NCBI GenBank assembly: GCA_029008615.1
Contig: JAQXJI010000003.1
Coordinates: forward strand, 1-64,000
Direction: 5' to 3'
From: Elusimicrobiota bacterium
GTDB taxonomy: Bacteria > Elusimicrobiota > Elusimicrobia > Elusimicrobiales > Elusimicrobiaceae
Length of the DNA: 64,000 nucleotides
Positions within the stretch are counted from its first letter, which is position 1, and every line of letters starts with the position of its first letter. The notes below the pieces were generated by a model that did no database searches, was not told the origin of the DNA, and saw only the letters and a list, made by a program, of their open reading frames with translations. Made by a program: the position numbers and the translations under genes. Shown in pieces: positions 4,210 through 54,987 of the stretch.

Positions 4210-4240
4210 ATTCCCCGGGTAAATGCCCGGGGAATGTATT
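4210..4240. terminator. intrinsic terminator, perfect 10-bp stem
   Basis: ATTCCCCGGG and CCCGGGGAAT pair perfectly around a 6-nt loop, followed by GTATTTTAT. It sits just after the DksA-like gene and marks the left border of the AT-rich cassette. The AT-rich stretch from 4241 to 4375 shows no gene. Confidence 0.75.
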
Positions 4241-4375: not shown

Positions 4376-5587
4376 CTATTTTGCTAATACCACCTTTTTA
4401 AATGTTGCACGCAATTTTCTTACATTGGTTTCATTTTCAGCCATAAAACAAAAACCGGCTTTTCCGTGTTGGACTGATGAGGTTAATATTATACCGCCTT
4501 TTGTATTATTTGATTTATTAATTTCATTAATCTGGGATATGAGCTTTTTTGTAGTTATATCTGGTGGCAAAGGTATGCTTGTATCTAAATAAAAAGTCAG
4601 CTTTTCTTTATCAATACCAAGGCTCGCAGCCAATCGTAAACAAAGGCCAAAGCCGTTATAGCGGCTGTTACATTCAAGAGCGCGTACTAATAGCTTTCCG
4701 TCTTTTATCCTTATAGCCCAGTCAAAATTAATTTGTCCTCTGACGCCTTGCCCATAATAATAACTTGCAAGAAGCATAGTTTTATCTTCTACTTCTTCTA
4801 ATATTTCTTTATCTATTTTTTTAAACGGGAAAAAACATCCTTCCCAAGCTTCTTTATGTATTATTTGGCAATCTATACCAGCAAAATGCACACCGTCGTC
4901 TTTTAAAATACACAAAGTTCCTAGAGTTTTATATATTTCTTTAAAAGGCTCTATATAAAAATCACTTTCTTTATGATATTGACGCATTTTTTTTAGGAGA
5001 TCAAACAGCTTTCCTTTTGTGTTGCCATAACCTCCTGCTGAAAACGGCCTTCTTAAAAGATATGTATCGTTAAAATTTAAAAATCTAAGTATTTTAGTTT
5101 TTTGATTTTTACCAGATGATATTGCCGGTTGTATAGTCTGGATGCCAAATTTTTTACATAGGTTTTTAAACATTAGCTTATCGTTTGCTTTTGACACAGC
5201 TATAGCATTGTTAAATAATATATTAGATGCCTTTTTACTCAACTGAGCAAAATTTTTACTGTAAATAAGCGGTATCATTACATAATCTTTTGAGCACAGC
5301 GTTTTGATTTTTGATAGTAATGCAGTATCTTGTGCTATGGCTTCCGTCAAAGGCTGCCCCTCTTCATGTTTGGAGGGGCTTAAAAGCCAATTTTTATTGG
5401 AAAATTTCTTTAGCTGTTCGGTATATTTTATAAAATCAGGGTCTTTCTCCACCAAAGGCGAAACTATTGCTATATCATCAGGTTTTAAAATTTGTATATA
5501 TTTAAGAGAATGCTTTTTTAATACGTAAAGTGCTTTCTCCTTAAATACAAAATCGTCCATATTAAGGACCCAAATTTTATTAGGCAT
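4376..5587 (-). CDS. ATP-grasp ligase of unknown substrate
   Basis: 403 residues, resembling ATP-grasp carboxylate-amine ligases. The best-supported motif is ECNSRYNG near residue 320, matching the metal-binding E-x-N-x-R segment of ATP-grasp enzymes. Before it are LLRRPFSAGGYGN (lid-like glycine-rich loop) and GQINFDWAI. The first ~130 residues would form the pre-ATP-grasp domain. Such enzymes join an acyl phosphate to an amine, as in peptide or amino-acid ligation. The start overlaps the end of the radical SAM gene by 8 bp, so the two are co-translated. The region is much more AT-rich than its flanks. The substrate is unknown; a peptide-like natural product is a reasonable guess. Confidence 0.7.
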   Translation of the reverse strand: MPNKIWVLNMDDFVFKEKALYVLKKHSLKYIQILKPDDIAIVSPLVEKDPDFIKYTEQLKKFSNKNWLLSPSKHEEGQPLTEAIAQDTALLSKIKTLCSKDYVMIPLIYSKNFAQLSKKASNILFNNAIAVSKANDKLMFKNLCKKFGIQTIQPAISSGKNQKTKILRFLNFNDTYLLRRPFSAGGYGNTKGKLFDLLKKMRQYHKESDFYIEPFKEIYKTLGTLCILKDDGVHFAGIDCQIIHKEAWEGCFFPFKKIDKEILEEVEDKTMLLASYYYGQGVRGQINFDWAIRIKDGKLLVRALECNSRYNGFGLCLRLAASLGIDKEKLTFYLDTSIPLPPDITTKKLISQINEINKSNNTKGGIILTSSVQHGKAGFCFMAENETNVRKLRATFKKVVLAK

Positions 5588-6533
5588 AGAATTTCCCGTC
5601 GCAAATATTACAACCGCAGCCTTTTATACCCAAAATATCTTCTTTGTCGGAAGATTTAAGTCCGCATAAAACAAATTCCATATTATATTTTTTTAGTATT
5701 GAAGTTATCGTTTTAACGCTTTCAAGCTTTACCTCATACTTTAAAGCATAATAAGTCGTTTCCGTCTGTTTAGGTAAAATTTGCCTGTTGTTATCTAAAT
5801 AGTTTGATTTTAGTTTAAGGAAAAAATCCTCACCAAATTTGTCAATAATATTTTTTGCTATAGTATAATCATAAAGCAAATAGGAAAACATTACTCTGTT
5901 TAGCCCCATTTCTTTAAGGCGGGCTATAAAAGGTTCCATCACTTCCGCAGTATCCTCCAAACCAACAATTAAAGGATCCATATGTATTGTTGTAAGAGCC
6001 CCGGCTTTATTTGCTCTTTGCGCCCATTTAAGGCGTTCTTCTGCAGTGGGGACATTTGTTTCCAAACATATTTCTGCCTGAGGTTTTACAGCAGCATTAT
6101 AGGAAAACTTATTAGCATATTTTTCTATAAGGGACATAATATTATCGTTGGGTATGCCTTTAGTTGTTATAATGATTCTTTTTATTTGCGGGTGTTCTGC
6201 CAATAATTTAAGTAATTTAAAGGAATAGCCGTCTTGAACAAATTTATTTGTAAATATGTCCGTATATCTTGAAAGTTTAATCGTGTGTATATTAGGGTCG
6301 GCATTTATTTCTGCTTCAATAGCTTTTAAGGCATCTTCTGCGCCTATACCTATTTGAGGATTATTAAAAGAGTTTCCAATTTCCTTAAGAACCTCTAAAA
6401 CATCACTTCTGCCTTTGCCATAGCAATATACACAATCATGTTCACATCCCGTAAATGGTTCTAAATAGTGATATTTACCATACCAGCAAGTGCCCAAACA
6501 ACCGGGTACAAAAAAACTTTTTTTAATTTTCAT
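5580..6533 (-). CDS. radical SAM protein, SPL/Rv2578c-like
   Basis: 317 residues. The cluster motif C-x3-C-x2-C is C30, C34, C37 in FTGCEHDCVYCYG, the context seen in spore-photoproduct-lyase-like and Rv2578c-like radical SAM proteins. It should bind a [4Fe-4S] cluster and cleave S-adenosylmethionine to a 5'-deoxyadenosyl radical. Additional cysteines C12 and C16 at the N-terminus and C306, C308, C311 at the very C-terminus (KGCGCNIC) could hold an auxiliary cluster. First gene of a leftward pair with the ATP-grasp ligase and divergent from the methyltransferase/MFS pair. True spore photoproduct lyase is unlikely given the neighbours and the lack of sporulation genes here. Reaction unknown. 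Confidence 0.8.
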   Translation of the reverse strand: MKIKKSFFVPGCLGTCWYGKYHYLEPFTGCEHDCVYCYGKGRSDVLEVLKEIGNSFNNPQIGIGAEDALKAIEAEINADPNIHTIKLSRYTDIFTNKFVQDGYSFKLLKLLAEHPQIKRIIITTKGIPNDNIMSLIEKYANKFSYNAAVKPQAEICLETNVPTAEERLKWAQRANKAGALTTIHMDPLIVGLEDTAEVMEPFIARLKEMGLNRVMFSYLLYDYTIAKNIIDKFGEDFFLKLKSNYLDNNRQILPKQTETTYYALKYEVKLESVKTITSILKKYNMEFVLCGLKSSDKEDILGIKGCGCNICDGKFYA

Positions 6534-6653
6534 ATATAAAGCCGCCTCAATAAATACTTAATAAAATTATATCAAACAGTAAAGACGTAAGAAAAGCTGT
6601 ATATCTGTTTTTTGTATAATATAAAAAATCATTACATACAGAGGGGTATATTT
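6534..6653. promoter_or_regulatory. divergent promoter region of the AT-rich cassette
   Basis: This 120-bp gap separates the radical SAM gene (leftward) from the methyltransferase (rightward) and must hold both promoters. On the plus strand a perfect TATAAT is at 6614-6619; no good -35 was found at normal spacing. A GAGGGG Shine-Dalgarno is at 6641-6646, 7 nt before the methyltransferase ATG. Confidence 0.45.
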
Positions 6654-7319
6654 ATGAATGACGGTACAACTACCAATTGGCATGATTCCGCTTTGCCGGA
6701 ATGGTATAACAAGAATATGAAGAATATTGCTGATTTGGAAAACTATGCCAAACTTTTCAATTTTAATAAAGAAGATGCGCTGCTTGATTTAGGCTGCGGA
6801 GACGGAACTTTACTAAAAATAGCTGCTCCTTTGTGTGCAAGTGTATGCGGAGTGGATATTTCTAAAGAGCAGTTAACCCGTTCCAAAGAAATACTGCAAA
6901 ATTTTGATAATACTGCTTTATATGAAATTCCTTTACAGGAAGCTGATTTCCCTACTGAAAGTTTTACTAAAATTTCAATGCGTAAGGCAATACATCATTT
7001 GACAGATAGTGAAAAAGACATAATGCTGTCAAAAATTTATAAATGGTTGAAGCCAGGGGGGCTTTTTATTGTTGAGGATATGATAACATCTTTTAATCTT
7101 CAGCTAAAATCAGATTTCTTAAATCTTGCTGAAGAAGAAGCATCCGTTTATTACGGGCAAAACTGGCCTGCTTTTAAAAAAGCGTTCTTTACTACTATGG
7201 ATAAGGAATTGCCTTGTGATTTAGCAACAATGACTAATCTTCTTTTAAAAAATAAATTCCATATAAGGAAAATAGATATAATCACTTGTTTTATGTCCAC
7301 ATTGACAGCGCAAAAATAA
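6654..7319 (+). CDS. class I SAM-dependent methyltransferase
   Basis: 221 residues from the ATG that follows a GAGGGG Shine-Dalgarno by 7 nt; a TTG start 42 bp upstream would lie on the -10 box and is rejected. SAM-binding motif I is LLDLGCGDGT, followed by the acidic residue in VCGVDIS, then motif IV-like RKAIHHLTD and WLKPGGLFIVED, a typical Methyltransf_11/25 layout. It would methylate a small molecule or peptide in the cytoplasm. The stop codon is directly followed by the MFS start, so the two are coupled. Its composition matches the AT-rich genes on both sides. Substrate unknown. Confidence 0.8.
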   Translation: MNDGTTTNWHDSALPEWYNKNMKNIADLENYAKLFNFNKEDALLDLGCGDGTLLKIAAPLCASVCGVDISKEQLTRSKEILQNFDNTALYEIPLQEADFPTESFTKISMRKAIHHLTDSEKDIMLSKIYKWLKPGGLFIVEDMITSFNLQLKSDFLNLAEEEASVYYGQNWPAFKKAFFTTMDKELPCDLATMTNLLLKNKFHIRKIDIITCFMSTLTAQK

Positions 7320-8546
7320 ATGAAAAACATATCTTTTAATAGCGAAAATTTTAAAGGCTGGAGTTTGGTAATAGCCGCTTTTGCAGTAGTTTTTGCTTTT
7401 AGTACTGCGGATCATGCAATATCGCCTATGGCAGATATTTTTAAGACGGCTTTTGCAATCAGCCAGGAACGTTCACTTTGGCTTATCAGCAGCTGTACTG
7501 TTGGGATTTTATTAGGTTTGTTTTCCGGTCCTGTATTAATTAAAGCCTATAAGCCCGGGCCTATCAGTTATATCTCGCTTTTGATGATGTTAACAGGTAT
7601 AACAGGTTTTATAGCTTCATTTAACTTTCTTTTAGCGTTGGGTTGCCGGTTGATATTTGGTTTGGGGGCCGGATTGGTAAGTACAGTTCTATGGTGGCTT
7701 GCATATGAAAGCATATCAAAGAAGTTTTATACCCCTATGATAACTGTCTTAACTGCAAGCCGTCCTATGGCTGTCGCTGCCGGTGTTCCTTTAATTTTAT
7801 GCTCATCTGTTGTGCTTGGCTGGCGTATTTCGTTTGCTTTAATAGGGGGCATATTAGTTTTGTCAATGCTTGTGTTTATATGGGCTTTGCCTTTATATAG
7901 GGGCAATATTATAAAATTGAATTTTACAGGTGCTATTAATACTTATATAGACTTGTTTAAAACTCCTTTTGTAAAACCGTTTTTTATTGCTATGTTCATA
8001 AACAGATTATGTTATTTTGGTTTTTACAGTATGCTAGGTATTTGGTTTATCAAAAAATACGGTTTTACTGCAGCAGCTTTATCAAAACCGCTTATGATTA
8101 TTGGCATATGTGAAACCGCAATTAATTTTATAGTGCCGATATTAATGAAATATGGGCAAAGAAAGCTTTTTTTAATTGCAGTATTTACCAATATAGTATT
8201 TTTTACTGCCTTCATATTAGGCATTCTGCCTGTTTGGGCAACTATATTGCTAATTGGCTTATTTGCTATGACAGACCGCATATATAATATGCTTTTGCTT
8301 ATATTTATACCGAATATTTTTAATCAATTTGAAAATAAGACCGTTATAGGCAGTATGGTAACATTGGTGTCTTGGGCATCTTTGGCTTTTATATCATATC
8401 TTGAAGGTGCATTATTAGATAAAATAGGGATGACGGCTTTTGCCGTTTTATTAATCATAGCCTTAACAGCAGGTATATTGTTATATATCAATACTTTGTA
8501 TCCTACTGTATTTTGTATGCAAAATTCAGGTAAAATACGGGCATAA
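7320..8546 (+). CDS. MFS transporter of the AT-rich cassette
   Basis: 408 residues with about 12 hydrophobic segments, typical of a major facilitator superfamily carrier of drug or small-molecule efflux size. The ATG directly abuts the preceding TAA, so translation is probably coupled to the methyltransferase. The sequence is poor in charged residues and AT-rich in composition (for example 16 G/C of 60 at 7921-7980). By position it is the natural candidate to export, or import, the product or substrate of the neighbouring ATP-grasp/radical SAM/methyltransferase enzymes. Direction and ligand cannot be read from sequence. Confidence 0.78.
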   Translation: MKNISFNSENFKGWSLVIAAFAVVFAFSTADHAISPMADIFKTAFAISQERSLWLISSCTVGILLGLFSGPVLIKAYKPGPISYISLLMMLTGITGFIASFNFLLALGCRLIFGLGAGLVSTVLWWLAYESISKKFYTPMITVLTASRPMAVAAGVPLILCSSVVLGWRISFALIGGILVLSMLVFIWALPLYRGNIIKLNFTGAINTYIDLFKTPFVKPFFIAMFINRLCYFGFYSMLGIWFIKKYGFTAAALSKPLMIIGICETAINFIVPILMKYGQRKLFLIAVFTNIVFFTAFILGILPVWATILLIGLFAMTDRIYNMLLLIFIPNIFNQFENKTVIGSMVTLVSWASLAFISYLEGALLDKIGMTAFAVLLIIALTAGILLYINTLYPTVFCMQNSGKIRA

Positions 8547-8635: not shown

Positions 8636-9991
8636 ATGGACAATATGTATTTTGAAAAATTATTACGCCGTTACCGCGTTCTTTTGCCTCAACAAAAGCT
8701 TGTAGTTATATTTTTACTTTATATGCTTGTAGGTTTTGTATTACTTAGCCTGCCTTTCGCGCAGAAAACTTCCGTGGGCTTTATAGATAATTTGTTTACT
8801 TCCGCTTCGGCTGTTTCCACAACCGGCCTTGTTACGGTACCAACAGGCGCATCTTACACGTTTTTCGGGCAGTTGGTTATTTTGCTGTTAATGCAGTTCA
8901 GCGCGTTGGGATACATGAGTTTCAGCTCTTTTCTGTTCCTTCAGGGGCATTCCAAACTGCCGCGCGAAACTAAAGAAATTATGAAAGCGGAATTTTCCGT
9001 CCCGCAGGATTTTAATTTAAACTTATTTATAAAGTCCATTATCTTTTTTACTTTGTTTGTGGAAAGTTTCGGCACTTTATTTTTGTTTTTGACTTTTTAC
9101 TTTCACGGGGGGGGATTCTTTTCCTCTTTATGGAGCGGCCTTTTCCACGCCGTTTCGGCTTTCTGTACGGCCGGGTTTACGCTGTATCCAGACAGCATGT
9201 CCGGCTTTTTAAAGGTACCTTTCGTTACGGAGCTTACTTCCATTCTTGCTTTGTTGGGGGCTTTCGGTTTTATACCTATAACCGAAATAGCGGAAAATAT
9301 GATGGGCCGGCCAAAGAAAATTTCTTATACTTCCCGCTCAATATTTTTTTCTTTTTTGGTTTTGATATCTTTCGGCGGAATAATGCTTACAATCTTTGAA
9401 CCTTCTTTAAAAAACTATGATTTTTCCACACGCGTTTACGGCGCGTTCGCCCAAGCAATTAACGCAATGACCACCGCCGGCTATAATAACATAAACTTGG
9501 CGGCTTCCTCTGCGCCCGCGCTTTGCGCTCTTATGCTTTTAATGTTTATAGGCGGAGCTCCTGCGGGTACTTCCGGCGGTATCAAAACCACAACAGTAGT
9601 AACGCTTTTTGCCGTACTGGTAAGCAGGCTTAAGGGGAGGGATTTTGTCCGTTTCAACGGTAAGGATATTTCTCAAGAAAAAGTTTTCGTAGCATCTTCC
9701 GCGCTTATCTTTTATATGATAGTGCTGTATGCCGTCATTTTGCTGCTTACTATAAGCGAAAACGCCTCTTTTCTTGAAATAGTTTTTGATTCTTTGGCCG
9801 CTTTAAGCACCGCCGGGCTAAGCCTGGGGCTGACGGAACAGATGTCTGCTTTCGGCAAAATTGTGCTTATTTTTGCGATGTTTGTCGGCAGAATAGGGGT
9901 AATTACCTTCGGGTTGGCTTTCTTTATGCGGGAAAGACAGCCGCGCGAACGCGAAGAAGAGCAGGCAAAAAAAGTTGATATCGCCGTATAA
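8636..9991 (+). CDS. KtrB/TrkH-type potassium transporter subunit
   Basis: 451 residues, the usual KtrB length. Four degenerate selectivity-filter loops characteristic of the Trk/Ktr/HKT superfamily are visible: SASAVSTTGL, HAVSAFCTAGF, QAINAMTTAGYN and SLAALSTAGLS, each with the conserved filter glycine. It forms the membrane pore for K+ (or Na+-coupled K+) uptake. KtrB normally works with a cytosolic RCK subunit (KtrA/TrkA); none is next to it, so the partner must be elsewhere. There is no Shine-Dalgarno before the ATG; a TATCAT box lies about 10 nt upstream. A second ATG 9 nt in is an equally possible start. Confidence 0.9.
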   Translation: MDNMYFEKLLRRYRVLLPQQKLVVIFLLYMLVGFVLLSLPFAQKTSVGFIDNLFTSASAVSTTGLVTVPTGASYTFFGQLVILLLMQFSALGYMSFSSFLFLQGHSKLPRETKEIMKAEFSVPQDFNLNLFIKSIIFFTLFVESFGTLFLFLTFYFHGGGFFSSLWSGLFHAVSAFCTAGFTLYPDSMSGFLKVPFVTELTSILALLGAFGFIPITEIAENMMGRPKKISYTSRSIFFSFLVLISFGGIMLTIFEPSLKNYDFSTRVYGAFAQAINAMTTAGYNNINLAASSAPALCALMLLMFIGGAPAGTSGGIKTTTVVTLFAVLVSRLKGRDFVRFNGKDISQEKVFVASSALIFYMIVLYAVILLLTISENASFLEIVFDSLAALSTAGLSLGLTEQMSAFGKIVLIFAMFVGRIGVITFGLAFFMRERQPREREEEQAKKVDIAV

Positions 9992-11441: not shown

Positions 11442-11457
11442 TGTTAGAATGTAAATA
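11442..11457 (+). promoter_or_regulatory. extended -10 promoter, leaderless start of the metzincin gene
   Basis: TGT followed by TAGAAT (11445-11450) lies with exactly 6 nt between it and the ATG at 11457, so transcription should begin at or next to the A of the start codon. There is no Shine-Dalgarno. Confidence 0.55.
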
Positions 11458-12287
11458 TGAATGTTGATATTTTCAGACGCTTGGGATTTTCATTACTGTT
11501 TTTCGCCTGCCTGCCGCTTTTGGGGCGGGCCGAGCCTTTTGCCCCTTTAACCGATATCGGGCCGGAAGACAGCCTTTATTCCGCTTCAATTAAAAACGGG
11601 GCTATCGCCTGCGCTTTATATTGTGAAGAAGAAATGGACTGTTCCGAACCGCCGGCGGAGGCTTACTTTTCAAGATTAAGCGGCGCGTTTAAAAGTTGGT
11701 TTTCCGGCGTGTGGAATATTATCCCCGAAGAGCGCAAAAGCGAATTCTTCGATTTAAAACCTTATTTGCTTTCGCCTAAAATAAATAAAGCCGGCAATAT
11801 TGAAGATTTACTATCCAAAACCGGGAAGAACTTTTCTTGGATAAGCGAATCTTTGGGGAAGAGCCGCCTCGCCGTTTCCGCGTTTGATACGGCTTTAAAG
11901 GCGGATTTAGCCGTTATCATAGTTAAAAAAGAAAGTTTAAAAGAGATTTGCGGTTCCAACGCTTTGGCTTGTTATGAAGCAGGATTTATATTTCTGCCGG
12001 AGGATTTTCAAGATAAAACTCTTATTCACGAATTGGGCCACGCTTTCGGCTTGGCCGATCAGTACCCGGCAGGGCTTCATAACGCAAATCCGGAATTATG
12101 CACATCTTCCATAAAAGAAGATTCCCTTATGGCCGCCGGCGCGCCCGACGTAACCTGCGACGAAGCCGACGGAGTTGTATTCCTTTTTGACTGCATTTTA
12201 ATGCCGCGCAATCCAAACAAAAGGCATAACGGCTGGAAGAGCCTTTGCGACAGAGATTTAACCATAAAGCACTGCCTGGTGGAATAG
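11457..12287 (+). CDS. secreted zinc metalloprotease-like protein (metzincin motif)
   Basis: 276 residues with an N-terminal signal peptide (hydrophobic LLFFACLPLLGRA, cleavage about residue 25). The zinc site HELGHAFGLAD is at residues 191-201: HExxHxxGxxD, the metzincin pattern with an aspartate as third ligand. A following LMAAG could be the Met-turn, and CDEADGVVFLFD is a conserved tail segment. A second protein with the same order of motifs is encoded at 43869-45242. The protein should act outside the cytoplasm, possibly as a peptidase; no substrate is evident. The gene appears leaderless. Confidence 0.72.
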   Translation: MNVDIFRRLGFSLLFFACLPLLGRAEPFAPLTDIGPEDSLYSASIKNGAIACALYCEEEMDCSEPPAEAYFSRLSGAFKSWFSGVWNIIPEERKSEFFDLKPYLLSPKINKAGNIEDLLSKTGKNFSWISESLGKSRLAVSAFDTALKADLAVIIVKKESLKEICGSNALACYEAGFIFLPEDFQDKTLIHELGHAFGLADQYPAGLHNANPELCTSSIKEDSLMAAGAPDVTCDEADGVVFLFDCILMPRNPNKRHNGWKSLCDRDLTIKHCLVE

Positions 12288-15196: not shown

Positions 15197-15760
15197 ATGA
15201 AATCTATTACTAAATTTGATTTGCAATATGCTCACAGGTTCTATGGTTTTAAAGGCGAAGCCCAGTATTTACACGGGCATACAGGCACTTTGACGATAGA
15301 AGTTGAAGATAGCGTTAATGACGGGGTAAATATGGTATTTCCCTGTAATGAAATTCAAAAAACAGCTTGGGATGTATTAAAAAACTTTGATCATGCTACG
15401 ATTTTAAGGGAAGATGACCCTCTTTTGCCGGCTTTATTGGATGTATATGAAAACCAAGGCATCAAAGACGGTACTCCGCAAAATACGATGAAAGGCGAAG
15501 CGTTTAAAACCGATCTTGCAACCGCTTATCCTAACTGCCGTCTTGTAGTAACTAAAGAAACTTTGACGGTAGAAGGTATGATAAAAATTGTTTATGATTT
15601 GCTTAAAGATAAATTAAATATTTCTAAGCTTACGTTTACAAGCGGAGTAAATGCCGCAACTGAGGATTATACAGTCAATAAAACTATTGAAAGATGCCCG
15701 TTATGCGGAATTGCTCTTAATAAAAATCATGTATGTCCTAAGTGCGGATATAAAAAATAA
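15197..15760 (+). CDS. 6-pyruvoyltetrahydropterin synthase/QueD-like protein with C-terminal zinc ribbon
   Basis: 187 residues in the COG0720 fold. Zinc ligands are H13, H26 and H28 (AHRF ... LHGHTG), and TVEGMIK matches the conserved PT(A/V)E segment. QueD enzymes use a cysteine in C-x3-HGH; here that position is alanine (A22), with a glutamate (E21) just before it, so the usual nucleophile is missing. The C-terminus (residues ~165-187) adds a zinc ribbon of two CPxCG knuckles. It may be a pterin/deazapurine enzyme variant of the type that uses Glu, or an inactive relative. SD AGGAG is well placed; no other queuosine genes are next to it. Confidence 0.75.
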   Translation: MKSITKFDLQYAHRFYGFKGEAQYLHGHTGTLTIEVEDSVNDGVNMVFPCNEIQKTAWDVLKNFDHATILREDDPLLPALLDVYENQGIKDGTPQNTMKGEAFKTDLATAYPNCRLVVTKETLTVEGMIKIVYDLLKDKLNISKLTFTSGVNAATEDYTVNKTIERCPLCGIALNKNHVCPKCGYKK

Positions 15761-37189: not shown

Positions 37190-40100
37190 ATGGCTATACC
37201 CAAAACAAGCGCATATATTGAAAATTTGGAAAACATTTACTGCCACAGCAGGAGTGCGGCCTGTTCTTTAAGTTCGGGTGCGGCAAAAACAAGAGGCGCC
37301 CGGATAATAAACGGCGGTAAAAAAGCCGTTTATACGGCCGCGGTTATAGCTATGCTAAACAATAACTTCGCCGCTTACGCATACGCGGACAGCTTTGTTC
37401 CCGTAGGGGAAACGGCTTCCGGCGTAATAGTGCAGGGCACCGATGAAGAGGCGGACTCTATGCACGTTTACGGTTCGGCGCATAGTACGGAAATCGACTA
37501 TAACGGTTATCAATATATTTATTCCGGCGGAGCGGCCGGGCTGACTTCCATTAATTCCGCGGGTTACCAAATAATATCCGGCGGCGGGAAAGCTGCCGAT
37601 ACAACAATCACCAACGGCGGCGAGCAGATTGTTTCAAGCGGCGCATTGGCGCAACGAACAAACGTAAATTACGGAGCTTTCCAAACGATTTATGCGGGCG
37701 GAAGTTCCTTGGACGTTACGCAAAACGGCGGAACGATAAACGCTTCCGTAGGCAAAAGCGGGGATAATGCCGCAACATATATTTCCGGCAAGAACCAAAA
37801 CGGAGAAGTCTTTACGCTTCAAAACGGTTCGGCAAATAATTTTATAATCAATTCCGGCGGATATTTAAACGTCAATTCCGACGGTACAGCCAATAACACT
37901 ACGGTAACTTACCAAGGCGTTCACAGTGTTGAAGCCGGCGGAAGTTCCCTGAATATAGACCAAAAAGCGGGCGGTAACATAAACGCGGCGGCAGGCAAAG
38001 ATTCCGCAAATATCTCCACCTTAATAAGCGGCGAAAACCAATACGGGGAAGCCTTTTCTCTCCAAAACGGCGTAGCGACAAACTTCGTAGTCAATTCCGG
38101 CGGAGCCCATACCGTAACTGCGGGGGGAAGTTCTCTTAATTTGGTGCAAAACGCGGGCGGCAATATAAACGCCGATGTCGGCGCGGACGCGGCAAATGTT
38201 TCCACATATATAAACGGCGTAAATCAAAACGGACAGAACCTTACTTTGGAAAACGGTTCGGCCAATAATTTTATAATCAATTCCGGCGGTTGGCAAAACG
38301 TATTTTCCGGCGGGCTGGTAACTAATACGACTGTCAACGGCAGGGGCTTGCAGTCTATATCCTCCGGCGGTAAAGCTTTAAACACCGTAATAAATGCTTA
38401 CGGGAGCCAAGCCATATATGAAGGCGGTCAGGCCGCAAGCGTTGTTATAAGCGGGCAGGAAGCTTTACAAAATATTTATTCCGGCGGTAAAGCCGAAAAT
38501 ATTTTGATAGAAGATTACGCAGCGCAAAATATCGGCGCAGGCGCACAGGCCGACAATACGGTAATAGGGGCAAACGGCATTCAGCAAATAGCTTCCGGCG
38601 GAACGGCCCAATCCACAACAGTCAATTCCGGCGGAACGCAAAGCGTTAACGCAGGGGGAAGTTCCTTGGACGTTACGCAAAACGCGGGCGGCAATATAAA
38701 CGCCGAAATAGGCGGCAATGCCGAAACTTATATTACCGGCATAAACCAAAACGGGGAAAGTTTTACGCTTCAAAACGGAGTAGCTGCAAATTTTGTGGTC
38801 AATTCCGGCGGGGCTCATACCGTAATGGCCGGGGGCAGTTCAATCAATTTAACCCAAAACGGCGGATACATTGATGCCGTCGTCGCTAAAGACGGGGACA
38901 ATATATCCACATACATAGACGGCGTCAACCAAAGCGGAAACGCTATGACCCTTTCAAACGGAAAAGCCGAAAATTTTATAATTAACAAAGGTTCTCAAAC
39001 GGTATCTTCCGGCGGGGTAACGGTTTCAACGATTTTAAATAATTCCTCATATCAATATGTCGGCCCGGGCGGAACGGCAAATTCTACCGTCGTACTCAGC
39101 GAAGCAGAACAGCACATATCATCGGGCGGTGCGGCTTACGGGGCGATTTTAAGCGGATTTTCGGCCTATCAAGTGGTTTCAAACGGAGGTTTTGCCCAGG
39201 GAACGGTTTTAAATTCCGGCGCGATGCAAAATGTACTTTCCGGCGGTTTGGACAATGAAGCGCAGGTCAATTCCGGCGCAAGCCAGGTTATTTCTTCGGG
39301 CGGCTCAGCCTACGGAGCGCAAATTAACTCCGGCGGGGTTCAATATATTTCCGCAGGCGGATCGGCAAATTCCTCTTATATAAATGAAAGGGGAAACCAA
39401 GCCGTAGAATCCGGCGCAATGGCGGAAAACACCGTTTTGGCTTCGGGCGCAAGGCAGAATGTTTTTGTTGGCGGAAGCGCTGTAAACGTAATACAAAATT
39501 CCGGCGCAAACATTAACGCCAGCATAGGCGCTGCGGCGGAATATCAAGACACATACATCACCGGCACTAACGAAAACGGCGAAGCTTTAACGCTTTCGGG
39601 GGCGGTCGCAAGCAATTTTATAATTAATTCCGGCGGCATACAGCTTGTTGATTCCGGCGGATCGGCCCTCAATACCATAATAAACGATAAAGGCTATCAA
39701 TACGTTTCGGCGGGGGGAAGTTCCATTGACGTAACGCAGCATTCGGGCGGTAATATAGACGTAATAGTCGGCAAAGACTCCAAAAACATTTCAACTTATG
39801 TCGGCGGCGAAAACCAAGAGTGCTCGGTTTTAAGCCTTTCCGGCGGAGTTGCAAGCAATTTTATAATCAATTCCGGCGGATCTCATACGGTTTTATCGGG
39901 CGGCAAATCCTTAGACGTTGTAATTAAATCCGGCGGTAATATTTATGCCGTCGTCGCCAAAGACGCCGCTAACATTGATACTTACATAAGCGGCGTAAAC
40001 CAAAACAACGACACTTTAACCCTCGACCAAGGGGTTGCAAGCAATTTTATAGTAAACTATTACGGCAAACAAATAATATCTTCCGGCGGCTCGGCTTACG

Positions 40101-43100
40101 ACACAATTATAAACGCGGAAGGCCAACAATGGATATCGGAAGACGGCATCGCTTATAACGCGCAAGTCAATCAAGGCGGGGTACAGCAAATATCCTCCGG
40201 CGGTGCCGCCGAAAACACCGAGCTTAAAGGAACTCAAGTTATTTTTGCAGGCGGTTCTGCCAATTTGACCGAAATAAACGGCGGAACGCAAAAAATTTCC
40301 GGCGGCGCGGCCGAAGGCACAGTAATAAATTCCGGCAGTCAGTTTATTTATGAAGGCGGAGCCGCCAGCGCTACTTTGGTGGCTTCCGGCGGATATCAAA
40401 TAGTGGAAAAAGGCGGCCTAGCTGATGGCACGGTGCTCTCTTCCGGCGGCGTTCAGCAGGTTTCCGCAGGCGGAAGCGCTGTCAATCTTACCCAAAACGC
40501 CGGGGCATACATAACCGCGGACGTCGCCAAAGACGCCGCAAATATTTCCACATATATTACCGGCCACAACCAAAACGGGGAAGCCTTAAGCCTTATCAGC
40601 GGCGAAGCAAACAATTTTATAATAAGTTCCGGCGGCGCGCAAAACGTTTATTCCGGCGGCGTGGCAGTTAATACAGTGGTGGAATCCGGCGGAAGGCAAG
40701 CTGTTTCGCAAGGCGGAAGCGCGGTAAACGTAATACAAAAAACCGGAGCGTACATAGATGTTGACGTCGCCAAAGACGCCGCGAATATTGATACTTATAT
40801 TACCGGGCAAAACCAATACGGAAGCAGTATGAAGCTTTTACAGGGTGAAGCTGAAAACTTAGTAATAAATACCGGCGGAAAACAAAATGTATATTCCGGC
40901 GGCATAGCCGACAATACCATCGTAAGCGGCGTACAGACGGTAGCTATGGGCGGTTCGGCCAATTATACCGATATTACCGGCGGTTTGCAGTTGGTTTCCT
41001 CCGGCGGCGCGGCAAAAGATACTGCAATCAACTTCTTGGGGGTGCAGGATATTGCAGGCGGTACGGCCGAAGGAACGACAATAAACAGTTTCGGCACTCA
41101 GACCGTGGCCGCGGGCGGAAGCGCGGTAAACACAATAATAAATGCCGGCGGCAATCAAAACGTATCTTCAGGCGGAACCGTAAACAATACGCAAGTCAAC
41201 GCTTCGGCAATACAAAATGTTATGGGCGGCGTTGCGAACTCAACCTTTGTCAATTCCGGCGCGGTTCAAAACATAACGGAAGGCGGTGCGGTGAGGGATA
41301 CTCAAGTCAACGCCGGCGTACAGAACGTCATAAGGGGTATAGCCATAAATACCGACGTGAATGAAGGGGCGGCGCAGAATGTTTCTTCCGGCGGAGTAAC
41401 AAGCCACACTTATGTAAATTCCGGCGGAACACAGACGGTTTATCAAGGCGGTGCGGCCGTATCCGCCACGCTAAGCGGCGGAGTGCAGAATATAGCCGGC
41501 TTGGCAAATGACACTTTAATAGCCGCTGGCGGCGTACAGAATATTTTGGCCGGCGGCGCAGCCGAAGGCGTAACGGCGGGTTCTGGCGGAACTCAAAACA
41601 TCAATGCCGGAGCTTCGGCCAAAAACGTATATGCGGCGGGCGGAACCGTCAATCTGCTTTCAGGCGGATCTTTGCAGGGTTACTCTGCCGAAAACGGAAC
41701 TTTGAACATTTACGGCAACAATCACATTTACGGCGATACGGTGTTAAGCGCGGGCGCGGCGATTAATATGGTTTCGGCTTCCTCAGGATTTACCGATTTA
41801 AACGCGGATAATCTCAAAGCCGATAACGCCTTAATGAAGATGAACGTCAATCTTGAAACCGGGGAAAGCGATAAACTGACCGTAAACGGCAACTATGAAG
41901 GCCAAACTATGCTAGCCTTAAACAATACCTCCGAAATTGCCAAAGAAACCACCGGCGACGGCATAAAACTGGTGGAGTTTTCTTCCGCCTCTCAAATTGA
42001 CGGAGATTTTGAACTTTTGGGCGGCAAATGGGACGAAGGCGGCTATGAATACCTTTTGCACCAAGGCACGGCGGCGGGGGAAGGTTACGATTATTATTTG
42101 CGTAATTCAATGGTATACAGCGACGTATTCAAGAGTATGCTCAACATTCCTTTGATGAACAGCGTAATAGCCAGAAGCGGTATGAATTCCCTGCAAAAAA
42201 GAATGGGCGATTTGCGAAATATGGCCGAAGGCTCCAACCAAAACGGAATATGGGCCAGAACTTACTATAAGGATATGCGCGTAAAGGATCTTGTGGAAAC
42301 GGATATGAGCCTCTTCGGCGTTGAAGCGGGGTATGATTGGCTGTTTACTCCTAATGAACCTAACAAGTTATACGCCGGCGTTATGATAGGCTACGCCAAT
42401 GCGGGTTCAATAAAAACCGAAAAAGAAAACGGCTCCGTCTACGGGGACGGCAAAGGTACATCGCCTAGCGTCGGTATATACGCCACTTTGATAAATGACG
42501 ACAAATGGTTTGTGGATTTGGCGGCAAGGAACTTTTGGACCAAACTGGATATGACGCACTATTCCGCTTCCGGCAATCAACTTAAATTTGAGCCGGAGCG
42601 CAACATATTCGCCCTAAGTTTGGAAGGCGGCAAAGAGTTTACCCGGGATTTGGGCGGGGATTCTTTTATCCGCATAGAACCTAAGGCTGAAATTGAATAT
42701 ATGTCCGCTTCTTCCGACGAAGTTAAAGTAAAAGGCGGAACGGGTGCATTGGCATACGACAAAGCAAACTATTTCAGCGCGAAAGGCGCGATTATGGCGG
42801 CTTACAGTATGCGCCAGCCTAATGGACTGCTTATAGAACCGCTTTTGGAACTTGCATACAGATATGAGTTTATGGGTGAAGGCGACGTAAGCTACGGCGG
42901 AGCGAAAGAAACCACAAGCCTTAAAGGCGGCACGCTTGAAGCCGGGCTCGGCATAAATATGCAGCTTACGGAAAACCTCTATTGGCACGCCGTGGGCAGT
43001 TATGAAGCCGGCGACAAACTGCAGGGTTGGGGCTTAAACGCAGGGATAAGGTATGCTTTCGGGGGGATTTCTTTCGGAAGCGGAACGAAAACCCGTAAAA

Positions 43101-43288
43101 ATAACCGTAAAGAATCTTTCTATGAATACAACAGATATGACCGCGGCTACTATGACAGAGATTACGACGAAAAACCTAAAAAAGAAAAACAAAAAAAGGT
43201 AAAAAAGGCCAAAAATAACGATAAAACTTACGAAAGCCAGCCCGACAGCAACGAGATACGCAACGTAAGAAGGCGTTACGAGTTTTAA
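37190..43288 (+). CDS. AIDA-I-like self-associating autotransporter, 2032 residues
   Basis: SD GGAG precedes the ATG. The first ~65 residues are an extended signal peptide with a charged N-terminus and a cleavage site after AYAYA. The passenger (to ~residue 1500) is made of SGG-rich strand-loop-strand repeats of the AIDA/TibA type (pattern SGGxAxxTxINSGGxQxV) interrupted by ten copies of a longer ~60-residue module. A linker leads to the beta-barrel from about residue 1657, whose last strand ends LNAGIRYAF (F1957). A 75-residue charged tail follows the barrel, which is unusual. It should be exported, pushed through its own barrel and displayed on the surface for aggregation or adhesion, after heptosylation by the upstream enzyme. 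Confidence 0.92.
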   Translation: MAIPKTSAYIENLENIYCHSRSAACSLSSGAAKTRGARIINGGKKAVYTAAVIAMLNNNFAAYAYADSFVPVGETASGVIVQGTDEEADSMHVYGSAHSTEIDYNGYQYIYSGGAAGLTSINSAGYQIISGGGKAADTTITNGGEQIVSSGALAQRTNVNYGAFQTIYAGGSSLDVTQNGGTINASVGKSGDNAATYISGKNQNGEVFTLQNGSANNFIINSGGYLNVNSDGTANNTTVTYQGVHSVEAGGSSLNIDQKAGGNINAAAGKDSANISTLISGENQYGEAFSLQNGVATNFVVNSGGAHTVTAGGSSLNLVQNAGGNINADVGADAANVSTYINGVNQNGQNLTLENGSANNFIINSGGWQNVFSGGLVTNTTVNGRGLQSISSGGKALNTVINAYGSQAIYEGGQAASVVISGQEALQNIYSGGKAENILIEDYAAQNIGAGAQADNTVIGANGIQQIASGGTAQSTTVNSGGTQSVNAGGSSLDVTQNAGGNINAEIGGNAETYITGINQNGESFTLQNGVAANFVVNSGGAHTVMAGGSSINLTQNGGYIDAVVAKDGDNISTYIDGVNQSGNAMTLSNGKAENFIINKGSQTVSSGGVTVSTILNNSSYQYVGPGGTANSTVVLSEAEQHISSGGAAYGAILSGFSAYQVVSNGGFAQGTVLNSGAMQNVLSGGLDNEAQVNSGASQVISSGGSAYGAQINSGGVQYISAGGSANSSYINERGNQAVESGAMAENTVLASGARQNVFVGGSAVNVIQNSGANINASIGAAAEYQDTYITGTNENGEALTLSGAVASNFIINSGGIQLVDSGGSALNTIINDKGYQYVSAGGSSIDVTQHSGGNIDVIVGKDSKNISTYVGGENQECSVLSLSGGVASNFIINSGGSHTVLSGGKSLDVVIKSGGNIYAVVAKDAANIDTYISGVNQNNDTLTLDQGVASNFIVNYYGKQIISSGGSAYDTIINAEGQQWISEDGIAYNAQVNQGGVQQISSGGAAENTELKGTQVIFAGGSANLTEINGGTQKISGGAAEGTVINSGSQFIYEGGAASATLVASGGYQIVEKGGLADGTVLSSGGVQQVSAGGSAVNLTQNAGAYITADVAKDAANISTYITGHNQNGEALSLISGEANNFIISSGGAQNVYSGGVAVNTVVESGGRQAVSQGGSAVNVIQKTGAYIDVDVAKDAANIDTYITGQNQYGSSMKLLQGEAENLVINTGGKQNVYSGGIADNTIVSGVQTVAMGGSANYTDITGGLQLVSSGGAAKDTAINFLGVQDIAGGTAEGTTINSFGTQTVAAGGSAVNTIINAGGNQNVSSGGTVNNTQVNASAIQNVMGGVANSTFVNSGAVQNITEGGAVRDTQVNAGVQNVIRGIAINTDVNEGAAQNVSSGGVTSHTYVNSGGTQTVYQGGAAVSATLSGGVQNIAGLANDTLIAAGGVQNILAGGAAEGVTAGSGGTQNINAGASAKNVYAAGGTVNLLSGGSLQGYSAENGTLNIYGNNHIYGDTVLSAGAAINMVSASSGFTDLNADNLKADNALMKMNVNLETGESDKLTVNGNYEGQTMLALNNTSEIAKETTGDGIKLVEFSSASQIDGDFELLGGKWDEGGYEYLLHQGTAAGEGYDYYLRNSMVYSDVFKSMLNIPLMNSVIARSGMNSLQKRMGDLRNMAEGSNQNGIWARTYYKDMRVKDLVETDMSLFGVEAGYDWLFTPNEPNKLYAGVMIGYANAGSIKTEKENGSVYGDGKGTSPSVGIYATLINDDKWFVDLAARNFWTKLDMTHYSASGNQLKFEPERNIFALSLEGGKEFTRDLGGDSFIRIEPKAEIEYMSASSDEVKVKGGTGALAYDKANYFSAKGAIMAAYSMRQPNGLLIEPLLELAYRYEFMGEGDVSYGGAKETTSLKGGTLEAGLGINMQLTENLYWHAVGSYEAGDKLQGWGLNAGIRYAFGGISFGSGTKTRKNNRKESFYEYNRYDRGYYDRDYDEKPKKEKQKKVKKAKNNDKTYESQPDSNEIRNVRRRYEF
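37500..41700 (+). repeat. coding repeats of the autotransporter passenger
   Basis: Dozens of degenerate repeats of about 19-22 codons encode SGG-type strand-loop-strand units. Between about 37694 and 40895 they alternate with ten copies of a ~60-codon module reading roughly AGGSSLDVTQNAGGNINA, a KDxxNISTYI stretch, then NQNGE, SLQNGxA and NFIINSGG. The DNA of the repeats is similar enough to allow slippage or recombination. They are coding and not a CRISPR or satellite. Confidence 0.85.
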
Positions 43289-43868: not shown

Positions 43869-45242
43869 TTATTTCGGCAATTTTATCTCCGGGTTTTCCT
43901 TTGATAACACTTTGGTCTTCTTTTTTACCAATTTGCCCTCTTTATATATTTCAAGCGTGTAATACAAAAGATTGCCGTTATTGTCATACTCCTCTATAAG
44001 AACCTGCTCATGTAAATTCCTAGGTCCAAAAGTGATTATTGCCTTATGCGTGCCGACGGGGACGCGGTTTTCGGAATTGTTAAAATCCACTATGCGCATA
44101 TTGCCGCTGACTCTTTGTAATCCACCTAACTTTTTAGGCATAGCTTTTTGGTCAAAATTTTTGTTAATCAATTTACGCCCTTCTTTAGCTTCCATATTAA
44201 TGTAAGTTCTGCTTTTAAAAAAATATACACCAGTATCTTTAGTATCACTGGAATAAGTCCTGCTCATATAGTTATAGCCTGAATTATAAGCGTTTGTTTT
44301 TTCTCCCTCAAAAGATTCTTTCCCTTCCGAAAATCTTATCCCGTCTTTGCAGAAAGATTCAAAATCCCTTTTTATCTTCAGAGCGTCGTCAAAAAGCATT
44401 ATAATTCCATCGACGTCATCGCACTTCAGCGTCTGCGTCAAATTATCCATAATGCTTATACGGGGATTTACGGTAGAATAAATGATATCGGCATTATCCG
44501 CTGATTTTAATTGGTCCGCCAAACCTATCGAATGGCCCGTTTCATGCAACATTGCATAAAATAAATTCTTTTTGGGGGGCATAAAGTTATTTATAAAACT
44601 TTCAAGTTCATCCAGCAAAGCGGCCATTTTGGTATATTCATAATTTGGAGTTTGCAAAATGTCATTCTTTAATTGGGAGAATTTCTTTGAATTTGAATAT
44701 ACGTCTATAAATCTCGTAGGTATTACGATATGAGGTGCGGGATTAAAAGTGTAGTGAGGGGGCATTTTATCTAAATAGTTCATTTTTGAAAAAAATACAT
44801 CTTCATAAAAAAACGAAATATCAGCAGCCGGGGCGGAAATAACTCCCGGAAGAGGATTAAGATATTTTAAATATTTTTCCGGATATTTGGAAAAATCACA
44901 ATTTTCAAGTAAAGTCAGGTTAGGAGCCATTTCCAGCTTTTCCAAAACAGTGGCAAATTCCTTTTCCCTGCCGGACTGCCTTATAACCTTCGCCGGATAA
45001 GCCGTCCATATTTTAAAAACAAGTTTTATATAATCTTCAAAATCCGCCTTTGAAATTGCTTTAAGCCCGTCCTCGCTAACGTAAGAACAATATGAAATAG
45101 ACTTTCCCGATGCAAGTTTTTCGGCCAAATATACGTTCTTGTTAATATTATAGGTGTAAAGCCTTGCCGCAGGTTTCGCATTAACCGCTACGGCAAAAAA
45201 ACATAAAGATAAAACAGTAAAAATTTTATAAAGGGCTTTCAT
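43869..45242 (-). CDS. secreted zinc metalloprotease-like protein, second metzincin
   Basis: 457 residues with a signal peptide (IFTVLSLCFFAVAVNA). The zinc motif HETGHSIGLAD starts at His233, the same HExxHxxGxxD pattern as in the protein at 11457-12287; both also share a methionine-containing turn (SIMDN here) and a CDDVDGIIMLFD segment. It differs by a longer N-terminal part and an extra ~150-residue C-terminal region of beta character (TYTLE/EQVLIEEYDN-like strands). It probably acts in the periplasm or outside. SD AAGGAG is clear. Function beyond a likely peptidase is unknown. Confidence 0.72.
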   Translation of the reverse strand: MKALYKIFTVLSLCFFAVAVNAKPAARLYTYNINKNVYLAEKLASGKSISYCSYVSEDGLKAISKADFEDYIKLVFKIWTAYPAKVIRQSGREKEFATVLEKLEMAPNLTLLENCDFSKYPEKYLKYLNPLPGVISAPAADISFFYEDVFFSKMNYLDKMPPHYTFNPAPHIVIPTRFIDVYSNSKKFSQLKNDILQTPNYEYTKMAALLDELESFINNFMPPKKNLFYAMLHETGHSIGLADQLKSADNADIIYSTVNPRISIMDNLTQTLKCDDVDGIIMLFDDALKIKRDFESFCKDGIRFSEGKESFEGEKTNAYNSGYNYMSRTYSSDTKDTGVYFFKSRTYINMEAKEGRKLINKNFDQKAMPKKLGGLQRVSGNMRIVDFNNSENRVPVGTHKAIITFGPRNLHEQVLIEEYDNNGNLLYYTLEIYKEGKLVKKKTKVLSKENPEIKLPK

Positions 45243-50979: not shown

Positions 50980-52602
50980 ATGGGATTAATATATTCTGTT
51001 TTACTTATGGCAGCGATGCTGTTCCTTACCGTGTTCTTCGGAGGGGGAGAACCATGGGTTCAGCTTTTTACTTACGCTTTTGTATATACGGGGGCCGTAA
51101 TTCTTTTGTTCAAAAGGCGGCGCATCTACTTGCCAAAAGCGGGAAAAATTATAGCCTCGGTTCTGATATCGCTTTTTATATTATCCTTGCTGCAAGCCTT
51201 AAATCCCAGAACCTTGCTTGACGCAAAAACATTTATTCCTTTTACTTTTTCGCCTCTTTATACATGGCAGGCCGCGCAAAGAATACTGTTCGGGATTTCG
51301 CTTTTCTATATAGTAACCAATGCGATAGAAAGCTCCAAATATACAAAACTCCTTCTTATAATGACGATAATATGCGCCTTATATGCTTTGTGCGCCGCTT
51401 TAATGTATAAAGGTTGGCAATACAGTTTTTTGCTTACAGGTTTTAAAACCCACTCTTTCGGCCCTTTTATAAGCAGAAATCACGGCGCGGCTTTTATGAT
51501 GATGTCATTTTTTTCGGCCGCGGCGTTATTTTTGCCGTCTTTTTTCAATAAGGAAAGGGATTTTAACAATCAAAACGGATATAAAAAAATCTTTTTCATT
51601 TTTATATTGATTTTATTGTTTTTCGGCGTTTTTGCCACCAGATCAAGGGGGGGAATATTATCTTTTATTATCGGCCTGTTTACGCTTGCGTGGACGCTTG
51701 TGCTGTCTTTATCTGAAACTAAAAGAAACAAGATACTCTTTTTATCCGTTTTAGTTGGCGCCGGGCTGATATTAATTGCAATCGGCGTGAATAACATTGA
51801 TTTTATAAATTCTTTTTCCAGGAGAAGCGCAGGGTTTTCCTGGTCGGTAAGAAAAGCATTGTATGCAAGCGGTTTGGATATGCTGAAAGATTACCCCCTT
51901 ACCGGCGTGGGATATGACGCTTTTTCCGCAGCGTTAGGGCCATATTTTCCGCAAGGGATAAACAGATTCGTCCTTCGCCTTCACAGCGATTGGCTGGAAC
52001 TGCTTCTATCTGTAGGAATCCCCGTTTTTACCGCTTTGGCGGCGGCCTGCATATATGTCCTGAACCTGTTTTTAAAAAGAATAAAACGCTTGAGTTCAGA
52101 TAAAAAAATAATGTTTTGTTCTCTTTTATCGGGCATTACAGCTTTCTGCGCGGCAAATATTGTGGATTTTCACTTTCATTTAGCGGCAACATATATGATG
52201 TTTTTCATTTTTTTGGGAATATTATGCTGCGAAACCTTCTGGCACGAAGAAGTATCACCCTTTAAAATATCTTTCTATTTAAAGCCGCTTTTTCTGGCGG
52301 CCGCGGCGGTATGCCTTTATTTTTCCTATTTGGAAACAACCGCCTGGCGGCAATACGTAACTGCGCGTATGTACGGAAACGAAAACAAATTAACTTATTA
52401 CAAATCGGCCGCGGAAATATATCCAATCCCCCGATACGCCGAATTATCGGCTACGGAAAGTTATAATATGTCGTTAAACAAACGCATTACTGCCGAAAAA
52501 GCGCAAAATTACAAAAAACAGGCGGCGGATTTATCGGAAAAATATCTTAAAATGTATCCCAAGGAAAAACAACTCTCAAAGATTTACGCCTTAACCCATT
52601 AA
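50980..52602 (+). CDS. O-antigen ligase/polymerase-family membrane protein
   Basis: 540 residues with about 12 hydrophobic segments and the Wzy_C/O-antigen ligase domain (motifs SRNHGAAFMM, ATRSRGG and, in the large periplasmic loop, LTGVGYDAFSAALGPYFP plus HSDWLELLLSVG). It joins or polymerises undecaprenyl-linked glycan on the periplasmic side. A C-terminal ~100-residue soluble part follows. TAGAAT lies 7 nt before the ATG with no SD, so it may be leaderless. A second polymerase-type gene lies at 57591-58733. Confidence 0.85.
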   Translation: MGLIYSVLLMAAMLFLTVFFGGGEPWVQLFTYAFVYTGAVILLFKRRRIYLPKAGKIIASVLISLFILSLLQALNPRTLLDAKTFIPFTFSPLYTWQAAQRILFGISLFYIVTNAIESSKYTKLLLIMTIICALYALCAALMYKGWQYSFLLTGFKTHSFGPFISRNHGAAFMMMSFFSAAALFLPSFFNKERDFNNQNGYKKIFFIFILILLFFGVFATRSRGGILSFIIGLFTLAWTLVLSLSETKRNKILFLSVLVGAGLILIAIGVNNIDFINSFSRRSAGFSWSVRKALYASGLDMLKDYPLTGVGYDAFSAALGPYFPQGINRFVLRLHSDWLELLLSVGIPVFTALAAACIYVLNLFLKRIKRLSSDKKIMFCSLLSGITAFCAANIVDFHFHLAATYMMFFIFLGILCCETFWHEEVSPFKISFYLKPLFLAAAAVCLYFSYLETTAWRQYVTARMYGNENKLTYYKSAAEIYPIPRYAELSATESYNMSLNKRITAEKAQNYKKQAADLSEKYLKMYPKEKQLSKIYALTH

Positions 52603-52615
52603 CAGCAGCTATAAA

Positions 52616-52632
52616 TGATATAATATATTATA
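52616..52632 (+). promoter_or_regulatory. consensus extended -10, leaderless start of the OPX gene
   Basis: TGA followed by a perfect TATAAT (52619-52624), then 7 nt and the ATG at 52632. No SD is present, so the exporter genes may have their own start besides read-through from the gene upstream. Confidence 0.55.
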
Positions 52633-53276
52633 TGAACAAATTTATACCCCTATTTATACTGACTTTCTTTACCTTGGCCTGCACAACCCGGGAAAATATA
52701 AAAGAAAAGCCTAAATTAGGCCAAAATAATATTTTAACCGATATACAAAATCAAATAGAAAACATAAGAATTTCTAATGATTATTTATTGCAGCCCGGCG
52801 ATCTGCTTGAAGTAAAAGTCTATATGGAAGAAAATATGGACAGAACTTTAAGAATCAGCGCAAACGGGACGATAACTTTCCCGCTGGTCGGCAATATAAA
52901 AGTTGGGGGGATGTCCGTCGCCGCGGCGGAAGGGAAACTTTCCGACGAATTAAAAAGATATATCAAAAATCCGCAAATATCTATGCTGATAAAAGAATAC
53001 GGCAATAAAACCGTGTATCTTTTGGGCCAAGTGCAAAAACCCTCCGCAATAGAAATACCGCCGGAAAAGCCTCTTACCGTGCTTGAAGCCATAACCTCCG
53101 TAGGCGGTTTTACGGATATCGCGGCGCCTTCAAAGGTGAAAGTGCTGAGAATGGAAAACGGCCGTCAAAAAGCGATAGACGTTGATATCGCGCAAATAAC
53201 AAAATACGGACAGAAATCATTGGATATAACCCTTATGCCGGGCGACGTCGTATTTGTCCCGCAGAGTATGTTCTAG
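52632..53276 (+). CDS. polysaccharide export lipoprotein (OPX, Wza-like)
   Basis: 214 residues. A lipoprotein signal ends with the lipobox LACT near residue 17. The Poly_export domain begins with LLQPGDLLEVKVYMEENMDR and the SLBB segment follows (VYLLGQVQKPSAIEIPPEKP). It forms, or helps to form, the outer-membrane channel for the glycan, together with the kinase/copolymerase encoded 9 bp downstream. It is shorter than Wza (~380) and lacks the long C-terminal helix, so it resembles short OPX proteins. Confidence 0.9.
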   Translation: MNKFIPLFILTFFTLACTTRENIKEKPKLGQNNILTDIQNQIENIRISNDYLLQPGDLLEVKVYMEENMDRTLRISANGTITFPLVGNIKVGGMSVAAAEGKLSDELKRYIKNPQISMLIKEYGNKTVYLLGQVQKPSAIEIPPEKPLTVLEAITSVGGFTDIAAPSKVKVLRMENGRQKAIDVDIAQITKYGQKSLDITLMPGDVVFVPQSMF

Positions 53277-53285
53277 GATGACGAA

Positions 53286-54983: not shown

Positions 54984-54987
54984 CCTT

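What the first reader, a model, noticed from the sequence alone, without database searches (positions are those of the whole stretch)
4376..8546. AT-rich divergent cassette: radical SAM + ATP-grasp versus methyltransferase + MFS carrier
Four tightly packed genes with far lower G+C than their flanks (by count 12/60 at 4921-4980 and 16/60 at 7921-7980, against 23/60 at 9241-9300) form two coupled pairs around a shared 120-bp promoter region. Enzyme types (radical modification, ATP-driven amide ligation, methylation) plus a transporter are the parts list of a small natural-product or peptide-modification pathway. No known cluster of this exact content came to mind, and no precursor peptide was found in the gaps, so it may act on amino acids or a small peptide. 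Composition suggests recent transfer.
Basis: partly seen in the sequence, partly recalled or inferred. Interest (0 to 1): 0.75.

Follow-up and report, generated by a model that had tools for sequence, protein, structure and literature searches.

The report
Conserved four-gene peptide-ligase biosynthesis cassette
Four neighbouring genes in an uncultured Elusimicrobiota bacterium form a unit that is kept together in three bacterial phyla and probably makes and exports a small amino-acid-derived compound that, as far as I could find, nobody has described.

Summary
Four genes lie at 4376-8546: ATP-grasp (A) and radical SAM (R) on minus, methyltransferase (M) and MFS carrier (T) on plus, around a 120-bp gap. 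At 33% G+C against 43% it is the most AT-rich 4.2-kb stretch of the window.

The four families form a real unit. They occur together in 28 genomes of Elusimicrobiota, Riflebacteria and one MAG labelled Cyanobacteria, mostly as a compact M-R-A-T operon. Among 341 Elusimicrobiota genomes R is in 24, A in 26, T in 25; 23 have all three. Where RA and MT are split onto separate loci, both pairs are usually kept.

A has the sequence and fold of PGM1/BesA-type peptide ligases, R the spore-photoproduct-lyase fold; T resembles efflux MFS families; M is a class I methyltransferase. No precursor peptide was found. Best reading: a small amino-acid or dipeptide-type metabolite, radical-modified, methylated, ligated by A and exported by T. 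Product and step order are inferred.

'Recent transfer' is not supported as stated: two sister species hold the cassette at the same site with normal G+C, so either an allele was replaced here or the locus drifted. New variant of a known kind.

The parts
4376..5587 (-). A: ATP-grasp ligase (403 aa), PreAtp-grasp/PGM1/BesA type
   Evidence: Family profile hits PDB 8ynd ATP-grasp peptide ligase E=1.2e-26, BesA 8yi6 3.9e-13, PGM1 3wvq 4.4e-10; model pLDDT 90 with the same top folds; PreAtp-grasp Pfam in 16 of 23 members; D289, E305, N307 and R309 invariant in 23.
5580..6533 (-). R: radical SAM enzyme (317 aa), spore-photoproduct-lyase fold
   Evidence: CX3CX2C at C30/C34/C37 invariant, plus invariant C16, C290, C311 in 24 members; top fold 4fhc, E=4.4e-9, TM 0.63; weak PA0069/Rv2578c profile hits in 24 of 24.
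6534..6653 (.). 120-bp divergent intergenic region, presumed to hold both promoters
   Evidence: Direct from sequence; promoter-like hexamers in the region are no more frequent than in shuffles.
6654..7319 (+). M: class I SAM methyltransferase (221 aa)
   Evidence: Methyltransf_25 E=6.4e-17; invariant W9, DxGCG and RK..HH residues across 19 homologues; ribosome-binding-like AGAGGGG upstream of ATG 6654.
7320..8546 (+). T: MFS carrier (408 aa), probable exporter
   Evidence: MFS_1 E=1.6e-15; family members match mainly efflux models: Cmx/CmrA in 13 of 19, MxcK and AraJ in 8 each.
4210..4235 (+). GC-rich terminator-like hairpin after the dksA-like gene; composition drops beyond it
   Evidence: 11-pair stem; G+C profile in 100-base steps.

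Best explanation
The four genes are a minimal biosynthesis-and-export cassette for a small, ribosome-independent, amino-acid-derived metabolite, most likely a modified amino acid joined by an amide bond (a dipeptide-like or pseudo-peptide compound). A, a PGM1/BesA-type ATP-grasp ligase, activates a carboxylate as acyl phosphate with ATP and couples it to an amine. R, a radical SAM enzyme with the spore-photoproduct-lyase fold, carries out a radical reaction on the amino-acid building block or on the ligated product. M methylates the compound. T exports it. Shown here: linkage, co-inheritance, enzyme classes and conserved catalytic signatures. Inferred: substrate, order of steps, export direction and biological role.
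For: Co-occurrence in 341 Elusimicrobiota genomes: R in 24, A in 26, T in 25, all three in 23 (Fisher R-T p=2e-32, not corrected for relatedness). All four in 28 genomes of three phyla. RA and MT pairs both kept in four genomes where they are split onto two loci. A is PGM1/BesA-type. T is nearest to efflux families. In annotated plasmids PGM1-related ligases sit with tailoring enzymes and an MFS carrier; one Streptomyces cluster has MFS, class I methyltransferase, ligase and a lysine 2,3-aminomutase, that is, all four functional classes. No conserved small ORF beside the cassette. Patchy distribution fits specialised rather than core metabolism.
Against: No product, substrate or activity is known. 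SPL-fold radical SAM enzymes with known function act on DNA. A alone occurs in the complete-looking genome G018 and T alone in G010, so single parts may have other uses. MFS direction cannot be proved from sequence.
Confidence: 0.62

Rival explanations
1. RiPP-type pathway: R, M and A modify a ribosomal precursor peptide (A ligating a non-proteinogenic residue as PGM1 does), with the precursor gene missed or encoded elsewhere.
For: PGM1 itself joins a non-proteinogenic amino acid to a ribosomal peptide (PMC8939145), and precursor genes can be as short as 18 bp (PMC13417212).
Against: No small ORF family conserved beside the cassettes; the genes overlap or abut, leaving no room inside most operons.
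Confidence: 0.15
2. Modification or salvage of an imported compound: T imports a substrate that R, M and A then modify or detoxify.
For: Some T members also match import families (TIGR00895, D-galactonate transporter).
Against: Most matches are efflux families; an ATP-consuming ligation is an odd catabolic step.
Confidence: 0.1
3. Macromolecule modification or repair (DNA, tRNA, protein or cell wall), with R as a DNA-lesion or RNA-modifying enzyme.
For: R has the spore photoproduct lyase fold and weak similarity to PA0069/Rv2578c families.
Against: An MFS carrier and a peptide ligase are part of the unit; present in only 24 of 341 genomes; spore photoproduct lyase family model matches only 6 of 24 members, weakly.
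Confidence: 0.1
4. The two divergent pairs are unrelated neighbours.
For: In part of one genus the two pairs lie apart.
Against: Joint presence and absence across 341 genomes, and a single M-R-A-T operon in distant relatives.
Confidence: 0.02

Closest known systems
Pheganomycin pathway (PGM1 peptide ligase, radical SAM enzyme, C-methyltransferase)
   Same: PGM1-type ligase together with a radical SAM enzyme and a methyltransferase (PMC8939145); A aligns with PGM1 by profile and fold.
   Different: No NRPS, polyketide synthase or precursor peptide was recognised beside the cassette; only four genes; whether R resembles the pheganomycin radical SAM enzyme was not tested.
BesA, L-propargylglycine-L-glutamate ligase of the beta-ethynylserine pathway
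   Same: ATP-grasp dipeptide ligase with the same fold (8yi6, TM 0.72) in a free amino-acid pathway (pathway knowledge from memory).
   Different: About 15% identity; no radical SAM partner in that pathway as I recall it.
8ynd ATP-grasp peptide ligase from Streptomyces
   Same: Best profile (E=1.2e-26) and fold match of A.
   Different: About 14% identity; I found no paper on its pathway in the held library.
PGM1-related plasmid clusters (Streptomyces sp. SAT1, Paraburkholderia, Rhizobium)
   Same: Compact sets of amino-acid-tailoring enzymes, PGM1-related ligase and MFS carrier; SAT1 also has a class I methyltransferase and a lysine 2,3-aminomutase.
   Different: Ligases are only 20-23% identical to A's family; the SAT1 radical enzyme is of the aminomutase type and the other two clusters show no radical SAM gene in the annotated stretch.
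Spore photoproduct lyase and the PA0069/Rv2578c radical SAM families
   Same: R shares the SPL fold (TM 0.63) and weak profile similarity to PA0069/Rv2578c in all 24 members.
   Different: Scores far below family cut-offs; R has its own conserved C-terminal CDGxFYA-type motif and extra invariant cysteines, and sits with a ligase and a carrier.

Membership tests
PGM1/BesA-type ATP-grasp peptide ligases | PreAtp-grasp plus ATP-grasp fold | tested here: met
   Model pLDDT 90; top PDB folds 8ynd, BesA, PGM1; PreAtp-grasp Pfam in 16 of 23 members, though not in the window's own copy.
PGM1/BesA-type ATP-grasp peptide ligases | Metal/ATP-binding D, E-x-N and R residues | tested here: met
   D289, E305, N307, R309 invariant in all 23 sequences and aligned with the 8ynd, BesA and PGM1 equivalents; that these are the catalytic set is general ATP-grasp knowledge.
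PGM1/BesA-type ATP-grasp peptide ligases | Amide-bond formation between carboxylate and amine | not testable with these tools
   Needs an enzyme assay.
Radical SAM superfamily | CX3CX2C cluster motif and partial TIM barrel | tested here: met
   C30/C34/C37 invariant in 24; model and fold matches.
Spore photoproduct lyase (DNA repair) | Sequence recognised by the SPL family model | tested here: inconclusive
   TIGR03886 matches 6 of 24 members weakly (best E=6.9e-5) and not the window protein.
Spore photoproduct lyase (DNA repair) | Active-site hydrogen-donor cysteine and DNA-lesion substrate | not tested
   No residue-level structural alignment was available; substrate not testable.
RiPP / graspetide pathways | Precursor peptide gene in the cluster | tested here: not met
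   No small ORF (18-90 aa) family conserved within 1.5 kb of the cassettes, except antisense artefacts of a flanking M20 gene; very short or distant precursors would be missed.
RiPP / graspetide pathways | SPASM/TWITCH domain on the radical SAM enzyme or an RRE domain | tested here: inconclusive
   No such model among Pfam or NCBIfam hits for the window proteins, but RRE domains are often missed by such scans.
DHA1 MFS efflux carriers | Profile similarity to efflux families | tested here: met
   Cmx/CmrA in 13 of 19 members, MxcK and AraJ in 8 each, all below curated levels as far as shown.
Anti-phage defence systems | Match to PADLOC models beyond a generic domain | tested here: not met
   Only M matches, to part of mad2, a methyltransferase domain region.

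The most novel reading that the evidence does not exclude
A self-contained four-gene pathway to a new class of radical-modified, methylated dipeptide-like metabolites in uncultured phyla, in which an SPL-fold radical SAM enzyme acts on a free or ligated amino acid rather than on DNA.
Probability: 0.3. Interest if true: 0.75.

Novelty: new variant of a known kind. Interest (0 to 1): 0.52.

Why it matters
It defines a compact biosynthetic unit, small enough to express whole, in phyla with almost no characterised natural products, and it gives a concrete substrate hunt for an uncharacterised SPL-fold radical SAM family. Joint inheritance of the four genes, even after they are split onto two loci, makes one coherent product likely.

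Tried and rejected
Mobile-element carriage: no relative of R in phage or plasmid records by tblastn, and none in viral contigs. A functional fifth gene: an M20 peptidase lies directly upstream in several f2/f14 genomes, but it is a housekeeping gene found in 150 of 341 genomes, mostly in genomes without any cassette, so it marks an old location rather than the pathway. Precursor peptide: none found. Riboswitch or other known RNA at the promoter: Rfam finds only a distant tRNA in the window. Defence system: no. Empty-site test in the genus: inconclusive; TrkH is itself accessory (5 of 18 genomes), in G012 it lies next to a pilin-like gene without a cassette, and in G005 it lies on another contig than the cassette. 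Sequence match of R to solved structures: only spurious hits. Literature: no paper describing this gene set was found in the held library; the library lacks most subscription journals.

Full report
What is there. The window is the start of contig 3 of a 1.66-Mb, 99.6%-complete genome whose named relatives are Elusimicrobiota MAGs. At 4376-8546 lie four genes: A (ATP-grasp, minus), R (radical SAM, minus), M (class I methyltransferase, plus) and T (MFS, plus), with an 8-bp R/A overlap, a 120-bp divergent gap, and T starting right after M's stop. G+C is 0.333 against 0.429 for the window, and this is the most AT-rich 4.2-kb stretch. GC3 is 0.26-0.30 against 0.44-0.58 in the flanking genes.

Is it a unit? 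Yes. A scan of one genome per species with the R family found 23 loci; 18 carried M, R, A and T together, in Elusimicrobiota, Riflebacteria and a MAG labelled Cyanobacteria UBA8530. Outside the window's close relatives the order is M-R-A-T in one direction, mostly with short overlaps; in the window's genus and some of its family it is the divergent RA|MT form. In 341 Elusimicrobiota genomes R occurs in 24, A in 26, T in 25, and 23 have all three. The exceptions: G232 has A and T with R cut by a contig end; G124 has R and A without T; G010 has T alone in an 88%-complete genome; and G018, a single 1,643,562-bp contig (the size I recall for Elusimicrobium minutum Pei191), has A alone. In four genomes of one genus RA and MT sit at different loci and both are kept. 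Riflebacteria: 5 of 40 genomes; the cyanobacterial phylum sample: 1 of 292. Pairwise distances of the four families over 28 genomes correlate at 0.89-0.96, as expected of joint inheritance, although shared species history alone also raises this.

What the proteins are. A: the family profile matches the 8ynd ATP-grasp peptide ligase (E=1.2e-26), BesA (3.9e-13) and PGM1 (4.4e-10), and the model (pLDDT 90) has these as its top folds. R: model pLDDT 89, best fold spore photoproduct lyase (TM 0.63), weak profile similarity to the PA0069/Rv2578c families, cluster cysteines plus invariant C16, C290 and C311. M: a small class I methyltransferase with an invariant RK..HH motif. T: similarity mainly to efflux MFS models.

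How it probably works. A forms an acyl phosphate on one partner and couples it to an amine; R does radical chemistry on the building block or product; M methylates; T exports. The reaction class of each protein is supported by homology; substrate, order and export are inference. The closest working analogies are pheganomycin, whose cluster has PGM1, a radical SAM enzyme and a C-methyltransferase (PMC8939145), and plasmid clusters in which PGM1-related ligases sit beside tailoring enzymes and an MFS gene, one of them (Streptomyces sp. SAT1) with all four functional classes. No conserved small ORF was found next to the cassettes, so a RiPP is less likely, though very short precursors can be missed (PMC13417212).

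Origin. The cassette lies at the same site, between a dksA-like gene and TrkH, in sister species G001 and G008, with GC3 of about 0.5 there. The concatenated tree groups the genomes mostly by taxonomy, but G005 of the window's genus falls among another genus, so some exchange occurs. In several more distant genomes the cassette sits beside a housekeeping M20 peptidase gene, suggesting an old resident position. In the window the low-G+C tract seems to run about 120 bp into TrkH (GC3 0.275 in the first 40 codons against about 0.475 after; p=0.019, a single test chosen after looking), which would fit homologous replacement of the locus by a low-G+C relative's allele. 'Recent transfer' of a new island is therefore not the right description; replacement or drift remains open.

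Verdict. Observation confirmed; functional-unit interpretation supported; recent-transfer claim not supported as written. This is a conserved and, as far as I could find, undescribed four-gene pathway of a recognisable kind: a PGM1/BesA-type ligase cluster with an unusual radical SAM partner.

Noticed in passing
15197-15760: QueD/6-pyruvoyl-tetrahydropterin-synthase-like gene with GC3 0.287, as low as the cassette and far below its neighbours; may share its origin or process.
   Followed up: no
37190-43288: 2032-aa repetitive autotransporter-like protein with many 'GG.a..t.v..gG.q.v..gG.a' repeats and a beta-barrel-like C-terminus.
   Followed up: no
50980-63992: Polysaccharide or capsule locus: O-antigen-ligase-like, polysaccharide export protein, chain-length/tyrosine kinase, flippase, glycosyltransferases, and a TPP-dependent MenD-like enzyme (60550-62319) in the middle.
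   Followed up: no
11457-12287 and 43869-45242: Two proteins with HELGHxxG/HETGHxxG zinc-protease-like motifs and secretion-signal-like starts.
   Followed up: no
L134:6705-7931 (G018:C1:99705-100910): Orphan copy of the A ligase, without R, M or T, beside pilin-like genes in a single-contig 1,643,562-bp genome, probably the cultured Elusimicrobium minutum; a possible relic or reuse.
   Followed up: partly
L041:4185-5111: In one Riflebacteria MAG the A gene is shorter (308 aa) and matches the profile in two pieces (1-199 and 312-417), as if the middle were deleted or misassembled.
   Followed up: partly
L164:6500-10692: In one Riflebacteria genome the M-R-A-T set is found on a high-G+C contig with the same order; with L163 it shows the cassette is spread over several Riflebacteria lineages.
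   Followed up: partly
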